Shown in pieces: positions 5,200-40,358 of a DNA stretch of 64,000 nt; positions within the stretch are counted from its first letter, which is position 1, and every line of letters begins with the position of its first letter. The position numbers and the translations under genes were made by a program. This stretch comes from Perkinsus olseni (Eukaryota; Perkinsozoa; Perkinsida; Perkinsidae), in assembly GCA_013115135.1 (NCBI GenBank), contig JABANP010000226.1, forward strand, positions 16,742-80,741. The letters are read 5' to 3'. The notes below the pieces were generated by a model. It worked only from the letters and a program-made list of their open reading frames with translations. It ran no database searches and was not told the origin of the DNA.

Positions 5200-7181
5200 T
5201 TCCCTATCGTGAAGACGGTATCGCCTCTTTCCGGGAGTTGATTGGGGTTGCGCCTCAGGAGCACAACTCCAACGAACGCTCCGACCGGCCCAGTAGCGGG
5301 GAAGCGGCGACGGATAGGGCATCGGTGACAACAGCCGATATATTGTTGTAATTATAGTAGACGTGTACCATTGCACTGCCTTCTCCGAGTGGACAGCGTT
5401 GTTGGGTCAAGGGTGGTTAGGGGAGGTCTTAGTTGGCGCAATAGAAGCAATGGTGCGTCGTGGAGGCAACCGGCTGAGAGTGTTCACATGATGATCGTCT
5501 CGTCTTTCTTCTCTCTGGGCTTTATCGCAGGGTGGTGGTGGTGTGCTCTAGTCTTGCTCGCAGTAGCTGCCAGTTTCTCTCATGGGCTCCGAAAAGGAGA
5601 CTAGAGTCCCACCTCCACTGGAGATACCTCTACTGCCACAAGAAGTAGGCTGTGGGGATCGAACTCGGGACCTTTGGATTACTCACTGTTTGTAGGAGGC
5701 TACATCTCCTCAACCAACCTGCAGTGAGTTCCTCTGCCAACCTCGCAACGTCCTCATACTGCTCGCGTTCCTGCTCTGCATTGCGGGCAGCATCAATGAT
5801 GTCTCTTGTAAAATAGTTCAGAACGTCTACGGGCAAGAGTAAGAAGCCCCTCCATTCCTCATCCAGTGTCCGCGCACTCGTGCCCGTCCGTAACAGTTAC
5901 GCCTTTTTCGTCGATCAATTCTGTAACGTGGGCTACATGGTCATGACTGCCGTACCGGCGATGGTCCTGAGGAGCGAAAGAAAGAACCAAAAGCAGCGAG
6001 AAGACACTTTTCCTCCGCAGTAAGCGCAGCGCTCGGTCGGGCTCTCTTCCGTGTATTCATGGCCAAGGTACAAGTTCGCTATCATGGGCCTCCTGGACGG
6101 CCCTTGGGACCCTCTTCAGCAGCATAGGGGGGCCCTCAACCCCGGGCCAATTCCAGACTGTCCTCAATCAGACGCTGATTCCGGTGACTATGATTTGCAG
6201 CAGTCTCGTGCTCGGCACGACCTATAACATAAAGTCCATTGTAAGTGTCGCCTTCGAGGCGTCCGGGAGTGTGCTTTTGTTGTAGGGCGCGGCGTTTATC
6301 GTCTTCGCTAGTGCGTGCGTCACCGTCATCCCCTCGCTCAGCGGAGCCTCGATCGCCAACTGCAGCGGCCTGTCGGTTTGTCTGTGAGTTCCTCACGCCA
6401 AACGCGTTGGGCCCAGCTCGATTCGGGCAGGTACTTTCTCTCCAACATCCCCATGGCCCTATCAAACGTGTATAAGGAGTCCGGCTTCAACAACTACGCT
6501 GTGGGGGTATGGACGATGACGGCCTACGTCGCCGCCTACCAGACGATCATCTCCTTCGGTCTCGGATTCCTGCAGTGTGTGCCGTACCTTTCTGGCCAGC
6601 CTGGAGGCGTACCCCTCTCACCGAAATCGGTGGTTTTCAATTTTCTCAACGCCTTCAGCTTTTCAATCGGACCCGCCGGACTGTTGCTTCTCACCTACTG
6701 TGTTGTTAACCTCGTCTTTAACGTGCTGGGAGTGGCAGTAACTCGCTACGGTTCGGCGCTACAAGTCGGAGCCATCATGTGCTCCCTAGCCTACGCCGTC
6801 AAGTTGCCCGTGTCGAGTCTGCTGTACACGAGCTCCTTCATCATGGGCGAGGAGTACGCTGAGAGCTTCTCCCCTTACTCTCTCGTTGGAGTCGTCGGAG
6901 TCACTATAGGCTTCATACTTTATGTACGTTATAGCAACCTGGGTGGCACGGAAGATAGAAGCGATTTCGTCACTCCAATACAGGTGAGATTCGGCCTGGA
7001 ATTTCGCTTATCATGCATGAGCGCTGGGAAATTCACTGGGTGTTTTCAGACGTCCTACGAAGAACCATGGGCCTTCCACGAGCGCGTTGTGGGCTGTGTG
7101 TCCTCTGGAGTGGTACCGCATACGCCGATCGCTGATAGGAGCACCACCACGCCTCGTTTCAATATGAATGAAGGAGCTTGA
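5200..7181 (+). CDS. Chloroquine-resistance-transporter-like (DMT superfamily) membrane protein
   Basis: Well-supported exons are 5897-6019, 6068-6240, 6286-6383, 6431-6983 and 7050-7181 (TGA); every splice keeps phase. Motifs include FFVDQFCNVGYM, KFAIMGLLDG, QTVLNQTLIPVTM, GAAFIVFASACVTVIPS and LSNIPMALSNVYKE, followed by long hydrophobic helices. This order is that of CRT/CLT proteins, vacuolar or plastid drug/metabolite transporters with about ten membrane helices. A hydrophilic open stretch near 5210-5350 (FRELIGVAPQEH) may be the N-terminal exon, but its link is unproven. Exon 6068-6240 needs a 1-nt shift at GGCCCT near 6094 to join the two conserved halves: either an indel in the sequence or a lesion. 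The substrate cannot be told. Confidence 0.8.
5645..5722 (-). repeat. Decayed tRNA-like segment with intact B-box
   Basis: On the minus strand a GAGTTCGATCC box follows a 5-bp stem and 7-nt loop (AGGAG/CTCCT). The T-stem has several mismatches and the spacing is too long for a working tRNA. It lies inside the CRT-like locus. Best read as a tRNA-derived relic or SINE fragment. Confidence 0.4.
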
Positions 7182-28853: not shown

Positions 28854-31581
28854 ATGCCAGTCGTCGTGGAGTTTGCTAGGCCGAATCTTTTATTCACGGT
28901 GTTTGGTAACACCGCTGTCTTCTGCGGCACTGTTACTCGCTCTTGCATGGATTACGGGGGTCTCAGAGTTGCGTGGTCGTTACGTTTCCCCTGCCAGGTC
29001 AACCGGTATACGGCTATGGTCTGTGCATGGCGCTAGCATTCATGTCGGCGTTATTGCTGGGGGATGGGGAGCTCCGGAGGAAGGCACTCAAGGTACCTGG
29101 GCGGGTTGGGGCGAAAAAGCCCGAGAGTCGTCGTGTAGTGAAGGGGGCAGTGGTCTCGCCTGATTCCGCCTTCGCGTGATTGTAGTGGGGGACACGTCCG
29201 CGTCCTATAGGCCTCCGTTCAATTCTTATGACTTCGTCAGATTGACTCCTCGGCACTGCTGCTGTCGGCTATGATTGGAGGAATCCTCGGCTCTCGGTTG
29301 CATTACATGCTTACTTGGAACAGTTCAAGTGCCGTCTCCTTTTGGGATATGTCCACTGGTGAGGTCCTCCGCGTACTCCCGAGGGCTTCGATGTTGCCCT
29401 CCTCATGCAGGTCATTCATTTCAAGGCGGTCTGCTCGGTGGTATCGTCGGGACGACAGGGTAGCCAAGTAGTTCGGACCGGCCTGCCTGGTAGTTGCTGC
29501 GTTCTTCAGTTACACTAAGCTGTACTGCAAGGAGTCTATCGGTCGCATGTTGGATACGCTAGCCCCGCTTCTGCTCATAGGCCACGCCATAGGTAATATG
29601 CGCTACGGTTGGTTTGGCTATGGTGCCTTGGAGCCATACCTGTCCGAGGCAGGCTTCCGAGGCTCGCTGAAGCCTGCCGATATTGTACTTGTTGAAATGG
29701 GTTACCCATTATGGGTACTCCTCCTCCCCTTTGTCACTCCGCGCTTTACAGTGTTAGTATCACTCGTTTCTATACTCGGTAATGCTACGGATACACTCGA
29801 ATCGGAAGTCCCGATATGAACGGTAGACGAGCTACGACTTTGGCCGTTACCCGTTAACCGGGCGGCTGGTAAGGGTTCCTCAGCCGCAAGCCACAGCGAG
29901 CGCGTGCGGTCATAGCTTGGGTGGCCGATGCGAAAGCATCTTATGGCAGAATGCTCGCGAGGATGGGGAGTATTCAGCTTGCGTGTCTGAGAAGTGCTGA
30001 ATCAGAACCATAAATAGTGTGGAGTGCACATAGAAGGAACCGGTCGAGTTTTTATGGGGAGCACTGGAGGCAATCTCACTGGCTTCCGAGAGGTTGAAAT
30101 CTGGTGCGGAGCTCGATCTTCGATTGCTCGAAGCAGATTGCTTTAAGAGTAATTTGGATTGGATACCCAGTATCGGTATCTGATACCGATTGGATTTGAT
30201 ATCAAGATTTGTGCTGTGGCTTACTCTGGTTGGCAACAAGGCGCGGTTTCCACCCAGGTCATGTCGCCGAATGCCAATCTAAACCCTGGTGCGGAGCGAG
30301 TACAAATAAGCCCTTAAAGACTTCTGGGAAGCTTGGATAACAAGAAATAGCGAAGGGATGTTGCCAACATCCCTTCTCTATTTATTGGTATCCAAATCAT
30401 GTTGGTAGCACCCCGTTGCATCGTTGTCAAGCTATGCCGATGTCGGGTATGGCAGGCGGTGCTATATTAAGCCGTACGAGAGATGTCAAGAGGCTTTCGC
30501 CCCCGGCATGGCGAACGAAGAACTTGCCGTGGAGGGAGTCCCTGTAGTTGAACGTGATTCGCGGGCGAAGATTGGAAGGAGCGGGAAGAGCAGTATCGCA
30601 TGGAAGAGGAGGAGCGTGTCCTAATGCGTATCCAACCCCATTGGAGCACGCCCTACAGGCATATTTTTGCCATATAGCAAGACACACTCGAGGCATTCTC
30701 TAATCTTAACTACGTTGTTCTCACGACCTTTACTAGCGACCATCAGGGGTATCGGAACAAGAGTCGCTGTCTCAAGGAACTCTTTGAGGCGGGAAGCTGG
30801 TTACAGTGTTGTATTGACATCGATGATCGATTCGATCCTGTTTCACTGTGTCGGGTTGCATGGGCATAGCGAACGCGTAGAAACATTGATAAATCCGTAT
30901 GGGACATGATCCAGTATGTGAGGCGTCACCTCCTCCCTTCAGGTAAAATTGGTTGCTTCATATCGGGTGATGGCTGCTACGGTTACCCCACTGATGTCCC
31001 GTGGGCAATGAGCTTCCCCAACGGACTGGTCCCGACTACCATAGGTGAGCTACGGGACGGTGCTCATCCTCTCTTGTATTCGGATATCTTCAGCCGTCCA
31101 TCCAGCCCCACTGTATGAGATGATAACCTCGGGTGGGGTTGGACTGATATTATGGGCTAGGAGGAAGCAACGTGAAGCTGTTACCTGGGCTCAGGTCTCT
31201 GACTTCTTCGTTCTACTCGGATCCACTAGGTGAGGTCTCTGGAACCATCGGGTACAGATTGTACCGGACAATACTCGTGAAGCTTGTGATAACTTGATTT
31301 ACTGATTCACGCAGGACTCGCACGAGACAGGCTTATCTTCCGGCCTCTGCGATATCTTCCCAGTCCTGCTGGAACGAATGACGGTTATCCGAATAGCGTT
31401 CAGGTTCTTCGTGGAGAGGTATCGTGGCCATAACAGGTTGGAAGGTGTGGGTATCAGTCAGTATCAAGTGGTGGCTTTATGTTTTATACTGGCCGGTCTG
31501 ATTATGAGATTGGCGATCAACCGTGGATGGTTCTCTTCGGGGACTGAGAAGAAATCTAAGAAGAACGTACGGGCGAAGTAG
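28854..31581 (+). CDS. Lgt-like prolipoprotein diacylglyceryl transferase homologue, copy 1
   Basis: Eight exons: 28854-28905, 28998-29092, 29241-29358, 29411-29459, 29510-29592, 30943-31044, 31094-31229, 31404-31581. They total 813 nt with no stop before the TAG, so 270 residues, normal for Lgt. Family motifs appear in order: EFARPNLLFTVFGQPVYGYG (N-terminal helix), GSRLHYMLTW, FQGGLLGGIVG, LIGHAIGKIGCFISGDGCYG, VPWAMSFPNGLVPT, AVHPAPLYE, and RFFVERYRG then GISQYQ. In bacteria Lgt moves diacylglycerol from phosphatidylglycerol to a lipobox Cys in the inner membrane. Substrate and location here are unknown. Intron 5 is long (1350 nt). First of three tandem copies. I chose ATG 28854 because it precedes the conserved ARP motif; the frame is open further upstream. 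Confidence 0.9.
30690..30870 (+). repeat. Coding-like block inside intron 5 of Lgt copy 1
   Basis: The frame reads FSNLNYVVLTTFTSDHQGY, then SRCLKELFEAGSWL, before a stop. A similar block lies in intron 5 of copy 2. It looks like an old protein-coding fragment duplicated along with the locus; no family was recognised. Confidence 0.5.
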
Positions 31582-32258
31582 GAAGGGCATAATAGCGATG
31601 GTCATATGTCTTGTTTTTACTCGCCCTGATCTCTATCAAGAATCATCTGGTCATGTTGGTCTAAGTGAATTAGGGTATATCCTTGTGCCTAGCTATCTCG
31701 CTGGTCGTGTGTTTCAGGAAGAAGGACTGATTTGGTGTTGGCGATGATGTGACGGTGCCGAGCGGGTCATGCTGATTCTGCACAGCATGGCACTGCGGCA
31801 GCAGCACGGTTGTTAGCATGGAGTGCCTTTTCTTCCGCAGTGCGGGCTTGGATTTAGTGAGGGTGGAGGGCGCAGGGTATGTCAGCCTGACATTGTGACG
31901 GAGAAAGGTGTATGCCGGAGGACCTGGAGCCCCGAATGTCGTGAATGTCTCTCTCGAGTGTCGTTTTCCACATGCTGTTGGCTCGTGTTTCGGCATTCAC
32001 CAGGGTTTTTGGAAGAGTGGGGCGGGCGATATATCGTGGTTTGTCCGACAAACTATGTCGGGAGTGTAGCCTCTCCGGGCAGGGGACCCTGGGAGCTTTG
32101 ATATGTGAAGGCACTGTTGGTCAATCCGTATTCTGAATTCATCGCTTTTCTGGTGATGGAATCTAGCTTTTGGCAGCAAGGCTCCTCCCAGGCTCCAAAA
32201 CTGGCTCATGCGCCTGATGGTCCACGTCAAGGTCCAGTTCGCTTTGTTTGTTCCGAAG
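31582..32258. other. Spacer between Lgt copies 1 and 2
   Basis: No confident gene. It must hold the promoter and any trans-splice acceptor of copy 2. Confidence 0.4.
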
Positions 32259-34735
32259 ATGGCCATCGTCATCGACTTCGCCAGGCCTGTCCTGTTTACC
32301 ATATTTGGTAGTACTCACTTCTTTGTGCCCGTCGTTTACTCGTAACAGCCGCATGGCCTCGATCTCCTGTCGTGGAAAGACCCGCAGCGAGAGGCACTGT
32401 GCAGTTGGCTTCGGATGATGAGCTCATATGGCTGCCTGTGGTGCAGTTATCCTCGATATCGGTCTCGCTCCATTGCTATATATCTCATCGACGATGAGCC
32501 ATCGTCACGCTCGTGCATCATCTGGCCTAGATGATCTGGGATTCCCTGTCAGGCCAGCCAGTCTATGGTTATGGTTTGTGTATGGCGTTGGCATTTCTGT
32601 CGGCCTTATTCCTTGGCGACGGTGAGCTCAGAAGAAAGGGGCTGAAAGTAAGATAGCGGCGAGGCGACCCGTCTAGGACTTGGTCCCGGGGCTGTAGCGC
32701 GGAGTCGCTTTAGATCGACTCCTCGGCACTGCTGCTGTCGGCTATGATTGGAGGAATCCTCGGCTCTCGGTTGCATTACATACTCACTTGGAACAGTTCA
32801 AGTGCCGTCTCCTTTTGGGATATGTCCACTGGTGAGGTCCTCCGCGTACTCCCGAGGGATTCGATGGTGCCCTCCTCGTGCAGGTCATTCATTTCAAGGC
32901 GGTCTGCTCGGTGGTATCGTCGGGACGACAGGGTAGCCAAGTAGTTCGGCCCGGCCTGCCTGGTAGTTGGTGCGTTCTTCAGTTACACTAAGCTGTACTG
33001 CAAGGAGTCTATCGGTCGCATGTTGGATACACTAGCGCCCCTTTTACTCATAGGCCACGCCATAGGTAATGTTTTTCCAAGAAAATATTCTTAGAACCAT
33101 GGCTGTTCGAGACTTGCTTTGAAAGCTCGGTAAGCCAAAGCGGCTTAAGTCTGCCAGGATCGTATCTTGCGGACGTTCCCGGTCTTCGCGTCTCATTTTT
33201 TAACGCAGCGACGGGTAACCTCGCCAGGGCAAGTCTAAGAAGTTCCCAGTGGGACCCACTGAGTGGGAACTCTCTTGCATTGAGCACGGCCACGGCTTGT
33301 CGATTTCGACGATAAAGGTTTCTTGCAAGAGCAACACAATCTGTGTTGCAGAAATCTACACATGTGATCCTCGTTCGGACATGTTGTTACATGAGCTATG
33401 GATATCTGACGGTGCGGTGATATTATCGACTGCGTATAAGCGGAAGATATCCGGGCTGGTTTCGACAGTGTGGCCGATGTTGGATTCATGCATCCGGAGG
33501 ATATCTCAATTCTCATGGGCGGCTTAGAGTTTTCTCTGAACCGGCCCCGTGCGAGTGTTTTGTACGAGCTTGGCCGGCCAGCATGCCGCCTGGCTGATAT
33601 TCTGGTGACAACTCGAAGCTTTCGAAACTCGGGGTCCTCGAGTGTCAAAATCCAGAAGGTTGAATTTTGGACCTACGTTATCTTACCTTCCCAACCTAGA
33701 AGATTCGGCACTGGCTTTCCTACCAACACTCACTTAGCTGTTGACTACGATAGGAAGGTTCGGCGCTGAGCTTTGGACAACCTCGTGACCTACGATGTGC
33801 CGTTAACAGACATATTCAAGGGCTTCTCTAACCTCAACTACCTTGTTTTCATGACCATTATTGCCAACCTTCAAGGGTATTGGATCAAGACGCGTTGTCT
33901 CAGGGAACTCTGAGAGCCGTGGAGCTGGTTAAAGTGTGCTATCGACATCGATTCGGTCCAGTCTTGCTGTGTTGGATTGCATGGGGGCAGCGATCTCGTA
34001 TGAGCTCTCGTGCTCGTAACGAGCGTTGAGAAAGATGGGGAAGCAATCCTTCTGGAAAATGGTCCGACCTGTGAGGCATCACCTCCTTCCTTCAGGTAAA
34101 ATTGGTTGCTTCATATCGGGTGATGGCTGCTACGGTTACCCCACTGATGTCCCGTGGGCTATGAGCTTCCCCAACGGACTGGTCCCGACTACCATTGGTG
34201 AGCTACGGGACGGTGCTCATCCTCTCTTGTATTCGGATATCTTCAGCCGTCCATCCAGCCCCACTGTATGAGATGATAACCTCGGGTGGGGTTGGACTGA
34301 TATTATGGGCTAGGAGGAAGCAACGTGAAGCTGTTACCTGGGCTCAGTTCTCTGACTTATTCGTTCTACTCGGATCCACTAGGTGAGGTCTCTCGAACCA
34401 TCGGGCACAATACTCGTGAAGCTTCTGATAACTCCGACTCACTGAGTCACGCAGGAATCGCACATGACAGGCATACGGTATGCCGCATAACTTTTGGTCT
34501 CGCCGATATCTTCCCAGTCCTGAAGGAACGACTGACGGTTATCCGGATAGCGTTCAGGTTCTTCGTGGAGAGGTATCGTGGGCATAACAGGTTGGAAGGT
34601 GTGGGTATCAGTCAGTATCAAGTGGTGGCTTTATGTTTTATACTGGCCGGTCTGATATTGAAATTGGCGATCAATCGTGGATGGATCTCTTCGGAAGCCG
34701 AGAAGAAGTCTAAGAAGAAAGCACGGGCGAAGTGA
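32259..34735 (+). CDS. Lgt-like prolipoprotein diacylglyceryl transferase homologue, copy 2
   Basis: Exons 32259-32307, 32553-32647, 32714-32831, 32884-32932, 32983-33065, 34096-34197, 34247-34382 and 34558-34735 sum to 810 nt, 269 residues, ending TGA. The seven intron positions and phases equal those of copy 1. Motifs: DFARPVLFTIFGQPVYGYG, GSRLHYILTW, FQGGLLGG, HAIGKIGCFISGDGCYG, HPAPLYE, RFFVERYRG. Exons 3-5 with their introns, and exons 6-8, are nearly identical to copy 1, while exons 1-2 differ at roughly one base in five. That patchiness suggests gene conversion. Intron 5 is about 1030 nt and holds a block related to that in copy 1. Confidence 0.9.
33810..34000 (+). repeat. Coding-like block inside intron 5 of Lgt copy 2
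   Basis: Reads FSNLNYLVFMTIIANLQGY, then TRCLREL and a stop. It is related to 30690-30870 but carries more damage. It supports descent of both introns from one ancestral intron. Confidence 0.5.
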
Positions 34736-35175
34736 GGAACAATTGGCTGATGCTACCGTTCGAGGTTCCCGTTGATCGATGAGCTACGGGCATCTTCGAA
34801 CTGGCTTGGAAATGACTCAACTCTTCTCCTTCAGAAAGACGAACTAACGGTGCCGGCCCTGAGAGCGGTTCACCACCGCAATTTTGCAGGCTTCGTGCTG
34901 GAGCTCGAGTGCCTATAAGCTTTGATGAAGCCTTCGCGGCCTTCCGCCTGATAATGTCGAGATATGTCGAATGCTGCCACACCCGAATGGTTGTGTTGAG
35001 AGGGTCGAAGGCGTCGACAGAACGGATGCCGCAATCTCATCCCGTGAAGGCTGGTTTCGCTTCTCTTCCAAAGGCTCCATTATAATGAGGCGGTGGCTGA
35101 TCAGTCCAGTCCGTATCGCCGCCATGGTTGCCGAGTACCGCTTGCCGCAGGTCTTAAAGTTCCTTCCTCGTTTAA
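34736..35175. other. Spacer between Lgt copies 2 and 3
   Basis: No gene seen; no extended match to the other spacer was noticed. Confidence 0.4.
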
Positions 35176-36901
35176 TGTCTGTTACTGCTGAATTTGTCCG
35201 GCCGGTGTTATTCACTGTTTTCGGTAAGTCTGGTATTTTCCGCTTCAACGCAGCGATGCTGCAGCAATCCGTGTCCGTCTCCGATGACTGACTCAAGCTT
35301 GCTTGCTGTCGTCCCAGTTATTGAATGTATGCTTATAGCGGCTCACATAACTCGACGAGAGTCCCATTCGGACTCATTCGGCGAGAGTTCCGTTTGCACT
35401 TACGCACCTGCAAGCTTTCAGTGCTGCATGGTTCATTACTATTTCTTGTCCACTCTCGGGGTGGTTATCGTCCTAATCGTAGAAGCTCAAAAAACTCATC
35501 GTGCTGCCTTCCTAGGAGTGAACATCTTCGTCTATGGTCTCTGCATGGCTACTGCATTTATGGTCACATTTTCCCTGGGCCAGAAGGAGATCGCCAGAAA
35601 GCAGCTTAAGGTAGCTCATGGATATTTCGTGGGCTGGTCCTTTCCAGCTTTCCTATGTAACAGATCGACCCATCCATGCTTCTTATATGCGCTATGGTTG
35701 GTGGGGTAATCGGAGCCCGGATACACTACGCTTTGACTTGGGACCACAGTGCGTTGTTTGCTCTTAATACGGGTAGGTGAGAGGGCCTGCTGTGGTGGTA
35801 GATACCGCATTGTCCTCGCAGGTCTGTCCTTCCAGGGTGGCCTGATAGGAGGGATAATTGCTACTACAGTGTGAGGACCCGTGCTCAGTCGACCGCCCTC
35901 TCAGTCCATTGCAGGTACACTCGGTATTGGTGTCATGAATCTGTTGGCAAAATGCTTGACATGTTAGCTCCCCTGCTGATGCTTGGACACGCCATCGGTA
36001 ACTTTCCGCTATCATTGCTGCCTTGCTTCCCCTTCCGCATTGCTCCATCGTTGAACGGAGTGTTCAGTGCGAGGACTGCGGGGCAACAGATCGTCATCGT
36101 CCTGATGCCATCACGAGTTCGGTTGGATGATTCTCGAAACTGCGGTTGATTGTCGCGGAAATCTTCGATGTCGGCAGTAGGAGGAGTGCACCGTGTTGAC
36201 TGGCATGGTCTCCAGGTAAATTAGGCTGCTTTCCTGTCTGGCGACGGTTGCTACGGATACCCGACCGAAGTACCCTGGGCGATGAGCTTCCCTAACGGTC
36301 TGGTCCCGACTCTCACTCGTAAGCGATGGGGTGATGTCTTCATTAGTGGTGACTGCCTTTTAGCCGTCCACCCAACCCCATTGTACGAGATGGTAACTTC
36401 CGGTTCGGTCGCTGCGATATTGTGGTGGCGACGAAAGAAGGACGCTCCCACGTGGACGCAGACCTCGGACATGCTCATGCTCCTTGGTCTCACGAGGTAA
36501 GGACCTGCAAAGGGTGTTGAAAGAGTTGGTGAACAACAACTTCAAGGCCTTGTAATTCCTTAACGCGGAATCTTTTGGAGACAAAATTTGGGAGAATACG
36601 ACCATCGCCGCAAGGAACCAAGGTGTCGAAAATGTGCCGCACCTCGGACACGGTGGCCGGTATTGGCAACCAACTTCTGTTTGCGTGTGTTGGTGAACTC
36701 GAAAAGTCACCTCATGATGCCCGTGCGGATACTTTTTCTTCTTTCAGATTCTTCATAGAGGATTTCCGGACATACGAGCCGGTGGAGGGATTTTCTATAA
36801 ACCAGTACCAAATAGTGGCTGTCGGCCTGGTCCTTGCGGGCGCGGTTATCCACTGGACGCTCGCACAGCCGAAAGCTACACCCGCTGAAGCTTCGAAGTG
36901 A
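35176..36901 (+). CDS. Lgt-like prolipoprotein diacylglyceryl transferase homologue, copy 3
   Basis: Exons 35176-35224, 35516-35610, 35664-35772, 35822-35870, 35925-35997, 36216-36318, 36364-36496 and 36748-36901 sum to 765 nt, 254 residues, ending TGA. Same intron positions as copies 1 and 2 but clearly diverged. Motifs: EFVRPVLFTVFG, GARIHYALTW, GLSFQGGLIGG, GHAIGKLGCFLSGDGCYG, VPWAMSFPNGLVPT, HPTPLYE, RFFIEDFR, SINQYQ. Family features are as well kept as in the other copies, so it looks under selection. All introns are short (about 50-300 nt), so the long intron 5 of copies 1 and 2 is probably a later expansion. Confidence 0.9.
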
Positions 36902-36962: not shown

Positions 36963-37706
36963 TCCGCTTTCAGGAAGGACGACTAACACCTACCATCGAA
37001 AGCGGCCGTGTTACTGTGATATCGAATACTGTTACTCAGGATGTTTAGTTGTCTCATTCATTCTGTCGAGTTGGACCGGGAACTTCACCGAAATCGCCAT
37101 TGCGGTCGCGTCATCTCTATCTAGCCTACCGTAGAGAGCGAGACGAACATGTTTATGGCATCAGGCATTCCTGGTAGAATGTCGATTATCTCCCTCTAAT
37201 ATCGAAGTCCTCAGTTTTGTAGTGTTAGGGCGATACACAGTACTCGTCTTCTGATTCACGCTTTGGAAAGTGCCCAGCAGGCCTTAGGAGCGTCGTTCAT
37301 TTGAATGGATCACTGGATGGCCCTTGTAGTGTCTTTCGAAGCTCGTGGAATGCCTTTTCCCCGAAACCGCTGTAATTAACAAAATCAGTGCATCTTCGAG
37401 GACCGTAAAAGCCCCTCTTACCTTTTTGCTCTTTAGAGTCGCCGCTGAGTACCACTAACCTGTCATCTGAGACCCGAGAATGTAGTCAGGCTCCATTGTT
37501 GAGCGGCGAGTGACATGATAGCGTTCACCTTTACCATGGGAGATGTGGAAGTAACGGCTTCTGCTTGGTCTGGAAGTCGCTAGGAATTTTCAACGGACGA
37601 CTTCGTGAAATTTTTCCCCTCCGAGATGAGAATTTTCTGGGAATTTTCCTGCAATTTAGGATTCGTACGAGTAACCTTGCCCCTTCAGTTGTGGCCGGCC
37701 TTCCCT
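36963..37706. other. Intergenic stretch before the GT41 gene
   Basis: No gene recognised. A pyrimidine-rich acceptor (TGCCCCTTCAG) lies just before ATG 37707 and could receive a spliced leader or close a 5' UTR intron. Confidence 0.4.
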
Positions 37707-40358
37707 ATGTTTTCTCAATTCACCGGCAAGGACCAATTCGATGCCATATTATCAGACCCCGATGTAAATACAGCAGACCTGTCCGCAGATACTGAGCGAG
37801 CACTGGTACGTTATCTGCTTCGCTCCGCCTTTTTCACCGGCTTTTCGTTTCAGAAATCCGCCTGTTTTAATTATTCTCGGAAAGCCTTCACCGAGGCCTT
37901 GACCGCTCTCGACCGAATACCCCAGCCTCAGCCAGACGTAGCGGTCGTCGCTCGCTACTTGACGCTGAGGGCCCTCGAGCCTATCAACGCCGATGAGTTC
38001 GTCCGTCCATTGGTTGACCTCCATCGTGCTGGCCGGAGTTTGCTTGCCTCCTACTACCTTGCGCAGCACTACCACGCGACTTGTCGGTACATTAAGGCCT
38101 TGGGGGTCATCCAAGAGGCCCTTGTCCACGATCACAGCCTCTCCCAGCGCTATCAGGAGCGGTTTGGGAAGCTGACTGCTTTGTGCTTGACGGACGAGGC
38201 CTTGAGTATTGGCGATGCCACGGTGGCTCGGAAAACCCTTCTGAACGCCATCGAAGCCGACCCGAAGTGTTGCCCAGCGCTTTACAATCTGGCGGTCGTC
38301 ACGTCTGATCCAGTGGAGGCTTGCCGGTTGTATTTGAGGGTGCTGGAGTTGGACCCGAACCACGTCCAAGCGCTCAATAATATTGCTATACTGAGGAGAG
38401 AGGCCGGGAACGTCGATGATGCCGTGGTGGCCTTCCGACGGGCTCTACAGTGCCTCCGTGACAGACACCGGGACGCTCTGTTGGCGACTGATGGTACTTC
38501 TTCGGAGTTCAGTAGAAGCATAGAGACCATCTCGAGAGACTTGGCCGAGACATTGTTGATGAAGAATGAAGAGAGCGCGTGGCTGGAGGCCTATCAGCTG
38601 GCCCCTGACTACTACAGGGTCTTCCAGGCAAGAGCCGCGATGCTGCATCGACAAGGTGACTTCGCCAGGGAGCTCCCGGCTTTGGGTACGGCCATCGCCT
38701 TGGTGGAGCTGGACGGCCGTGTTACCGACTCTGTAAAAGGGGCCTTGTGGGCGGCTAAGGCGGAGTGCTACAGATTGCTTGATGATTGGGCGGACTGCAA
38801 GACGGCCATGGTGAAGGCAATCGACTTGGACCCGGGTAACAAGGACTATCGGCACAGACTCGGTGCTGTCTACGGCGTGGCTGGCCGGGACTTGGAGAGG
38901 GCTGTGAATTTGTGCAAGATCTCGGGAGAGGCAGAGGCTTTCAACACAGCGGGCATTTTCTTGCGTGATATTGGCTTGACGCGATCAGCCATCGCTTCCT
39001 TCGAGGACTGCCTTCGATTGGAGCCCGACCATCGTCATGCGCCCCACAGTAGGCTGATGAGCCTCAACTACCTCCCTCAAAGGGACGGCGGTCTGTGGGT
39101 GGCCCGAGAACACTGCCAGTGGGGGGACTCTGTCGTGGCTCGTGTTAATAAGGAGCTTGACAGGGACGCCTTGTTCGGAGCAGGGGAGACGAGAGCTGAC
39201 CCTGCGGAAGGCGGAAGGATCCGAGTCGGATATGTGTCACCAGATTTCAGAGGTCATTCGGTCAGTTACTTCGTAGACGGTCTCTTCCGTTCTCACGACC
39301 CCAGCAAGGTCGAGGTCTATGCTTACCACGACTCCGCCATAAATGATGCTGTCACCGCTAGACTGAGGGGGTCTGTCGAGAGCCATTCCCAGTGGAAGTG
39401 GAGGGACGTCCACGAGATGGACGATCGGCAACTTTGTCGACAGATTTGGCGTGATCGTGTCGACGTGCTGGTGGATCTGGCGGGCCACTCGGGCAACAAC
39501 CGTCTTTTAGTGTTTTGCCGTGAAGCCAGCTCGGTGTACGGTCACTTACATTGGCTATCCTAATACGACTGGTCTGCCTAATATGGACTTCCGACTGGTG
39601 GATGACGTGACCGATCCTGTGGGGGCCTCGGGTGAGGGTTATAGTGAGAAGCTCGTCCGGCTTCCTCGCTGTTTTCTGTGCTATACTCCTCCCCGATCAG
39701 CGCCCCTGAGTGCGCCTTAGAAGCCCCTCAGCGCCGCACGGGCGGTACGATCACCTTTGGCAGTTTCAACACCCTTGCGAAGTTGTCTGATGACACGGTA
39801 AGAGTCTGGTCCCGGATCCTGAAGGAAGTTCCGAACGCCCGGCTGCTGCTGAAATCGAAGGCTCTGGCCTCGGCTGTGGCAGTCGATAGACTCAGAAGAC
39901 TCTTCGGCGCGGAGGGGATATCCTCGGGCCGACTGGATCTGGTCGGAATGACCCCCTCTACTTCAACGCACTTAGGCATGTACGGCGAGATCGACGTGTG
40001 CCTCGACCCTTGGCCGTACGCTGGAACTACTACCAGCGCTGAGGCCATGTTCATGGGCGTTCCAGTGGTGACGCTGGCCGCTAGGGGAGCTTGCCACGCC
40101 CAGAGGGTCACCGCTAGCCTTGCAAAGGCGGTCGGTCGGGATTACGAAAGGGCCACTGTTGCTGCTACTGAGGAGGAGTACGTGGAGAAGGCTAAGAAAC
40201 TAGCGCGGGACGCTGATGGCCTCGAGAGATGGCGGAGGGAACTGCGGAGGTTGATGGTTGAGGGACCGTTGTGTGACTCGAAGCAGCACACGAGAGAGGT
40301 GGAAACGGCATACGGGAAGATGGTGTCCTCTACTGAAGCGGCCACGGCCAGAGATTGA
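37707..40358 (+). CDS. SPY: SPINDLY-type GT41 protein O-glycosyltransferase with TPR repeats
   Basis: No introns were seen. The N-terminal part (37707 to about 39200) holds tetratricopeptide repeats, e.g. CPALYNLAVV, LELDPNHVQALNNIAILRR and LEPDHRHAPHSRLM. The GT41 catalytic part follows: RIRVGYVSPDFRGHSVSYFV, DVLVDLAGHSGNN, TYIGYPNTTGLPNMDFRLVD, EKLVRLPRCFLCYTPP, ITFGSFNTLAKLSDD and PYAGTTTSAEAMFMGVPVVT. HSVSYF and the PYAGTTT loop point to SPINDLY, known in plants and Toxoplasma to add O-fucose to nuclear and cytosolic proteins, rather than animal OGT. The frame must shift by +1 near 39517 and back near 39690 (CCTCCCC). The 150 nt between them code for highly conserved motifs, so indels in the sequence are likelier than gene death. 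ATG 37707 was chosen because the frame upstream shows no domain. Confidence 0.88.

What the first reader, a model, noticed from the sequence alone, without database searches (positions are those of the whole stretch)
28854..36901. Three tandem, intron-bearing, intact homologues of bacterial Lgt in a eukaryote
Hand splicing gives three full open frames (813, 810 and 765 nt, each divisible by three) with Lgt motifs in order and seven shared intron positions. Lgt is established as a bacterial inner-membrane enzyme that lipidates proteins at a lipobox Cys. Conserved spliceosomal introns rule out bacterial contamination. The ancestor was probably acquired from bacteria (or an organelle), gained introns, then duplicated twice. 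Kept motifs in all three suggest function, perhaps an unknown lipidation step in an organelle or the secretory path.
Basis: partly seen in the sequence, partly recalled or inferred. Interest (0 to 1): 0.88.

Follow-up and report, generated by a model that had tools for sequence, protein, structure and literature searches.

The report
Bacterial-type lipid-anchor enzyme in protist ER
A single-celled shellfish parasite and its dinoflagellate relatives carry in their nuclear genes a remodelled bacterial enzyme that fixes lipid anchors to proteins, apparently tagged for the endoplasmic reticulum, and the parasite also has a gene for the next step, so a pathway thought to be bacterial may run inside some eukaryotic cells.

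The parts
28854..31730 (+). LGT1, intact, 9 exons: 28854-28905, 28998-29092, 29241-29358, 29411-29459, 29510-29592, 30943-31044, 31094-31229, 31404-31577, 31718-31730; 822 nt with stop, 273 aa, ends RAKKKD
   Evidence: splicing with 8 GT-AG introns; PF01790 E 8.1e-42; 97% identical to P. olseni P0001
32259..34847 (+). LGT2, intact, 9 exons: 32259-32307, 32553-32647, 32714-32831, 32884-32932, 32983-33065, 34096-34197, 34247-34382, 34558-34731, 34835-34847; 819 nt with stop, 272 aa, ends RAKKTN
   Evidence: PF01790 E 8.8e-43; same last four residues as P. marinus P0002
35175..36986 (+). LGT3, 9 exons at the same positions: 35175-35223, 35516-35610, 35664-35772, 35822-35870, 35915-35997, 36216-36318, 36364-36496, 36748-36897, 36974-36986; frame broken in exon 6. 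In-frame ATGs also lie upstream of 35175, so the start is uncertain
   Evidence: the exon 6-7 stretch is the single PF01790 hit; upstream open frame
36216..36318 (+). LGT3 exon 6 with the frame break: 103 nt against 102 nt in LGT1 and LGT2, within the GKxGCFxSGDGCYG motif
   Evidence: three-frame reading; P. olseni models P0005 and P0007 are open here
31718..31730 (+).
   Evidence: P. olseni model P0001 ends KKKG
34835..34847 (+). LGT2 mini-exon 9: completes the dilysine C-terminus KKTN, then stop
   Evidence: P. marinus model P0002 ends KKTN
36974..36986 (+). LGT3 mini-exon 9: would complete the dilysine C-terminus KKDD, then stop
   Evidence: P. olseni model P0005 ends KKDD
29411..29459 (+). 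LGT1 exon 4, SFQGG: the E. coli H103 position is Q
   Evidence: alignment to E. coli Lgt; counts
30943..31044 (+). LGT1 exon 6, signature GKIGCFISGDGCYG: the E. coli R143 position is K and E151 is D

Best explanation
These genes encode a eukaryotic, ER-resident branch of the Lgt family. An ancestor of dinoflagellates and perkinsids took an Lgt of the GD-YG type (GDGCYG, GDGDYG or GDDYG motif) from a bacterium. It gained introns and a cytosolic C-terminal dilysine tail that returns the protein to the ER through COPI. In the ER the catalytic face, periplasmic in bacteria, would look into the lumen, where signal-peptide-bearing proteins emerge. I infer that the enzyme transfers a diacylglyceryl group from a membrane lipid to a cysteine at the end of a signal peptide. 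In Perkinsus the LspA homologue would then cut the signal peptide, leaving lipid-anchored surface or secreted proteins. The changes R143K, H103Q/M and E151D suggest an altered donor lipid or transition state. Perkinsus duplicated the gene before its species split (LGT3 type and LGT1/2 type) and again in the P. olseni line. Shown: genes, introns, family, fold match of a close relative, tree, dilysine tails, LspA in the same genome. Inferred: ER location in vivo, catalysis, donor, acceptor.
Against: In E. coli Lgt, R143K and H103Q are each inactive (PMC4728403, passages). NCBIfam Lgt equivalog cut-offs are not reached (84.7 and 86.4 bits against 118.9), nor those of LspA (57.9 against 73.95) or Lnt (67.8 against 132.9). 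No lipobox substrate was identified; a scan of this window alone gave one weak candidate. Perkinsus LspA models and the P. chesapeaki Lgt models do not end in a dilysine motif. The LspA searches named no dinoflagellate, though both were limited by shared words. 27 of 84 eukaryote-type rows have more than 12 residues before the Lgt core, 7 more than 40, which could hold targeting information. C-terminal KKxx does not always mean ER: Cisd1, which has it, is mitochondrial (abstract start of PMC8482578 in a listing). No transcript was seen across the window's own splice sites. The dN/dS pair includes patches that look like gene conversion.
Confidence: 0.6

Rival explanations
1. Same fold and ER location, but repurposed: the eukaryotic branch no longer makes diacylglyceryl-cysteine. 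It transfers another lipid head or acyl group, acts on a non-protein acceptor, or is a non-catalytic lipid-binding protein.
For: R143 is K in 81 of 84 and H103 is H in none of the 84 eukaryote-type rows (the rows were picked partly by these two residues, see full report). R143K and H103Q kill the E. coli enzyme. LspA was not named in dinoflagellates.
Against: H103 is Y, F or L in 80 of 83 bacterial genome loci, and such proteins are the only Lgt found in chromosome-level bacterial records, so it is not universally needed. R239, E243 and R246 are invariant in 84 of 84. Perkinsus has the partner LspA with its aspartate pair.
Confidence: 0.27
2. An organelle enzyme: lipidation in the mitochondrion or relict plastid, where phosphatidylglycerol is more plentiful (recalled).
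For: Perkinsus is said to keep a cryptic plastid (PMC7789003, passages). P. olseni P0005 (LGT3 type) has 29 residues before the core, and upstream of window LGT3 the frame stays open and looks presequence-like by eye. 27 of 84 rows have some N-terminal extension.
Against: LGT1 and LGT2 have 9 residues before the core and 57 of 84 rows have 12 or fewer. Dilysine tails are widespread. Amoebophrya A25 and A120 are reported to lack a plastid but keep Lgt.
Confidence: 0.1
3. Bacterial contamination, or decayed copies without function.
For: LGT3 is broken in this assembly.
Against: 24 GT-AG introns in shared places, relatives in three Perkinsus species and in dinoflagellates, low dN/dS, EST. Applies at most to LGT3.
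Confidence: 0.03

Closest known systems
Bacterial Lgt, phosphatidylglycerol:prolipoprotein diacylglyceryl transferase (E. coli Lgt, PDB 5azb)
   Different: H103 to Q/M/I/L, R143 to K (81 of 84), N146 to C, N149 to S or A, E151 to D; W256 falls in a gap in 84 of 84 and Y259 in 81 of 84; nuclear, introns, dilysine tail
GD-YG-type Lgt of Poribacteria, Calditrichota, Fidelibacterota (Marinimicrobia), Gemmatimonadota, Acidobacteriota
   Same: Nearest bacterial relatives on the tree; GDGCYG, GDGDYG or GDDYG signature; H103 mostly already replaced
   Different: R143 kept in 119 of 119 bacterial-type rows; dilysine tail in 10 of 119, 2 of 83 among genome loci
P. marinus 'Prolipoprotein diacylglyceryl transferase, putative' (P0002, P0006) and the P. 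chesapeaki and P. olseni models P0001, P0003-P0005
   Same: Orthologues of both gene types
   Different: Known to me only by database name and as an EST listed under glycan assembly; no pathway, ER signal or residue change described in what I saw
Bacterial LspA (PDB 5dir)
   Same: Perkinsus homologue matches the profile; D123, D141, K27, N53, N111, D114, R115 and N138 are invariant in 34 of 34
   Different: D23 to E and A140 to S in all 34; three introns in the Perkinsus gene core; long tree branch

Membership tests
Lgt protein family (PF01790) | Profile match over the curated cut-off along the whole domain | tested here: met
   143.6 and 146.8 bits against 24.9, profile positions 3-237 and 1-237 of 240
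Lgt protein family (PF01790) | Lgt fold | tested here: met
Functional Lgt as defined in E. coli | Catalytic R143 and H103 | tested here: not met
   K and Q in LGT1 and LGT2; both substitutions inactive in E. coli
Functional Lgt as defined in E. coli | R239, E243, R246 network | tested here: met
   84 of 84 eukaryote-type rows
Functional Lgt as defined in E. coli | NCBIfam TIGR00544 equivalog cut-off | tested here: not met
   84.7 and 86.4 bits against 118.9
Functional Lgt as defined in E. coli | Diacylglyceryl transfer to a lipobox cysteine | not testable with these tools
   needs an assay
ER-resident membrane protein with dilysine retrieval | C-terminal KKXX or KXKXX | tested here: met
   LGT1 and LGT2 through exon 9, and LGT3 by the same exon; 65 of 84 rows
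ER-resident membrane protein with dilysine retrieval | Cytosolic C-terminus and ER location | not testable with these tools
   inferred from the E. coli topology: N-terminal strand in the periplasmic head, 7 TM helices (PMC4728403 passages)
LspA, signal peptidase II (PF01252), locus L002 | Profile match | tested here: met
   67.2 bits against 25
LspA, signal peptidase II (PF01252), locus L002 | Aspartate pair (catalytic role recalled) | tested here: met
   E. coli positions D123 and D141 are D in 34 of 34
LspA, signal peptidase II (PF01252), locus L002 | NCBIfam TIGR00077 equivalog cut-off | tested here: not met
   P0121 57.9 bits against 73.95
Lnt, apolipoprotein N-acyltransferase (locus L011) | NCBIfam TIGR00546 equivalog cut-off | tested here: not met
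   67.8 bits against 132.9, E 9.7e-19
Lnt, apolipoprotein N-acyltransferase (locus L011) | E-K-C triad (positions recalled) | tested here: inconclusive
   E, K and C motifs line up by eye in a non-significant pairwise alignment, E 0.37

The most novel reading that the evidence does not exclude
Dinoflagellate-line eukaryotes run a bacterial-type lipoprotein pathway in the ER. A remodelled Lgt, and in Perkinsus LspA and perhaps an Lnt-like enzyme, make diacylglyceryl-cysteine anchors on secreted proteins beside GPI anchors. The donor is an ER lipid other than phosphatidylglycerol, which is why R143 became lysine.
Probability: 0.4. Interest if true: 0.95.

Novelty: new variant of a known kind. 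Interest (0 to 1): 0.8.

Why it matters
[quoted passage not shown] If a protist line moved Lgt and LspA to the ER, there is a eukaryotic lipid anchor besides GPI, prenyl and acyl anchors that, as far as my searches show, has not been looked for. It would add a class of surface proteins in dinoflagellates and in parasites of shellfish. It would also give a natural experiment on which Lgt residues catalysis needs, since a whole clade carries substitutions that inactivate the E. coli enzyme.

Tried and rejected
Contamination: rejected (24 GT-AG introns; relatives in other species). Alternative splicing that keeps LGT3 open: reasoned through by eye on the sequence, not by script; the only way I found is a GG-AG intron, which would lose the GKxGC motif. 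Viral contigs: two scans, no relative. LspA donor: the tree has one long branch (4.06) to the 34-row eukaryote-type clade, with a long-branch warning, and gives no donor. E. coli Lnt by pairwise BLAST: no significant match; PDB by sequence for the Lnt-like ORF: none at E 0.01. An archaeal lipoprotein factor that I recalled (AliA) was not found in the library. Foldseek PDB search: machine busy, not run. Structure of LspA: job never accepted. GPI pathway lost? One PIGA exon hit says GPI synthesis is probably present. Promoters, trans-splicing and RNA families were not examined. That the unnamed metagenome proteins are eukaryotic is inferred from tree and tails only.
Full report
WHAT IS THERE. 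The window lies on contig C142 of a 61.5-Mb, 968-contig assembly. LGT1 is 97% identical to a Perkinsus olseni protein, and the LspA core found elsewhere in the genome is 99% identical to another, so I take the organism to be P. olseni or very near. The three tandem genes splice with GT-AG introns at the same positions. LGT1 and LGT2 are open throughout. LGT3 is not: exon 6 has 103 nt against 102 and the frame breaks in the signature motif. Other P. olseni models of that copy are open there (P0005 complete, P0007 partial), so this may be an assembly error or an allele. Searches of the own genome by profile (1 match) and by protein (17 matches) reported LGT-like stretches only at this locus; both score best candidates only.

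THE MISSED EXON. In all three copies exon 8 in fact ends one base before that stop codon, in the donor context AA|GT. A 13-nt exon follows after introns of 140, 103 and 76 nt and completes, with the split lysine codon, KKKD, KKTN and KKDD. KKTN is the end of P. marinus P0002 and KKDD that of P. olseni P0005. A C-terminal KKXX on a membrane protein with a cytosolic tail is the classical COPI retrieval signal (established knowledge). No transcript of this genome was available, so the mini-exons rest on sequence and on agreement with models of other assemblies.

IS THE TAIL MORE THAN CHANCE? Rows: the 120 listed hits (of 1085 found) plus LGT1, LGT2 and 83 bacterial genome loci reached, dropping two models (P0007, P0008). 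A database row was called eukaryote-type unless it has Y or F at E. coli position 103 together with R at 143; this gave 84 eukaryote-type and 119 bacterial-type rows (36 database proteins, 83 loci). The choice leans on two residues, but all 51 eukaryote-type rows put into the tree fall in one clade and no other row does. Of the 84, 63 end in KKXX or KXKXX; shuffling the last 15 residues gives a mean of 11.2 and a maximum of 23 in 2000 shuffles. Bacterial-type rows give 10 of 119 (shuffle mean 5.5, reached or passed in 86 of 2000): 2 of 83 loci and 8 of 36 database proteins. LspA-type rows give 20 of 33 (shuffle mean 3.0, maximum 11). With the window mini-exons the first count is 65 of 84. Rows are related, so I clustered them: at 60% identity 16 of 22 clusters hold the motif in at least one row and 14 in most; among 15 named or transcript-derived eukaryote rows it is 11. 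Against it: the Perkinsus LspA models lack the motif, as do both P. chesapeaki Lgt models and one of two Amoebophrya rows.

ORIGIN. The 99-row tree puts the 51 eukaryote-type rows in one clade (100/100) inside bacterial GD-YG-type Lgt, next to P0053 and P0054 (96/86; P0054 is labelled Poribacteria but stands apart from the main Poribacteria clade). Eight Perkinsus rows, 16 dinoflagellate-type rows and P0033 group together (96/91); the Amoebophrya rows sit at the unresolved base. LGT3-type and LGT1/2-type genes separate before P. chesapeaki, P. marinus and P. olseni do (both 100/98); LGT1 and LGT2 split later. LGT1 and LGT2 are nearly identical, introns included, over exons 3-4 and 6-7 but not in exons 1-2 or introns 1, 2, 5 and 8, which suggests gene conversion; dN is 0.037 and dS 0.24-0.29. 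One search covered 13 bacterial genomes: 9 had one PF01790 protein, the GD-YG type, among them five chromosome-level records (G001-G003 Poribacteria, G005 Neomarinimicrobiota, G006 Gemmatimonadota); 4 had two or three. LspA was found in 11 of the 12 searched (none in G008). So the GD-YG type, with H103 replaced, is very probably a working Lgt in those bacteria, and H103 cannot be universally needed.

THE REST OF THE PATHWAY. A Peptidase_A8 (LspA) hit on another contig (446 kb) is an intron-bearing gene; the spliced core of 155 aa matches at E 2.3e-18. Relatives are named in P. marinus ('Lipoprotein signal peptidase, putative') and found in P. chesapeaki and in unnamed sequences; the profile search gave 37 proteins in all and no named dinoflagellate. 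Positions E. coli D123, D141, K27, N53, N111, D114, R115 and N138 are invariant in 34 of 34, while D23 is E and A140 is S. A 521-aa ORF on a third contig matches Lnt profiles: TIGR00546 E 9.7e-19, 67.8 bits, below the cut-off; PF00795 E 3.5e-13; PF20154 at 28 bits in the genome search but 24.2 bits, below its cut-off of 27.1, for the protein. I hold this third enzyme to be uncertain. A PIGA exon hit suggests GPI anchors are made too.

MECHANISM. Bacterial Lgt has its N-terminal strand in the periplasmic head and seven membrane helices (PMC4728403, passages), which puts the C-terminus in the cytosol and the active site outside. In the ER the same topology puts the active site in the lumen and the dilysine tail where COPI can bind it. 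The simplest reading is lipidation of signal-peptide-bearing proteins at the ER. Amoebophrya A25 and A120 keep the gene though they are reported to have lost the plastid and perhaps the mitochondrial genome (PMC7789003, passages), which speaks against an organelle role. Most rows (57 of 84) have 12 or fewer residues before the core, but 27 have more, the Amoebophrya rows about 150. What is not shown: activity, donor, substrates, localisation.

NOVELTY. Searches of the open-access library for the enzyme name with Perkinsus, alveolate or dinoflagellate found one paper, which lists an EST (passage read). LspA with Lgt and protist terms, 'lipoprotein signal peptidase' with Perkinsus (none) and 'diacylglyceryl transferase' with protist terms listed nothing on a eukaryotic lipoprotein pathway, judged by titles and abstract starts; for only 20 of 162 and for only 10 of 167 were listed. 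Most subscription papers and preprints are not in that library.

Noticed in passing
G000:C445:300499-303849 (L002:1172-1845): Intron-bearing LspA (signal peptidase II) homologue in the same genome, aspartate pair kept
   Followed up: yes
G000:C279 (L011:1381-2946; L125:4705-6270): 521-aa Lnt-like ORF (membrane part plus nitrilase domain). Upstream ORFs on L125 resemble acyl-adenylating/condensation enzymes by eye, but the two that were scanned had no Pfam hit at E 0.001
   Followed up: partly
window 28854-34847: LGT1 and LGT2 nearly identical, introns included, over exons 3-4 and 6-7 but diverged elsewhere: looks like gene conversion in patches
   Followed up: partly
window 37605-40358, + strand: TPR plus glycosyltransferase family 41 (O-GlcNAc transferase or SPINDLY-like) gene downstream of the cluster
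   Followed up: no
window 6315-7181, + strand: ORF matching PF08627, CRT-like membrane transporter family
   Followed up: no
P0094 and P0119 (dinoflagellate-type Lgt rows): Carry R at the R143 position within an otherwise K-bearing clade: apparent reversions, useful natural variants for testing
   Followed up: no
P0008 (P. olseni FOZ63_002615): 206-aa model that reads from exon 5 straight into intron 5 of LGT1 and resembles the window ORF 29547-29819: intron retention or a model error
   Followed up: no
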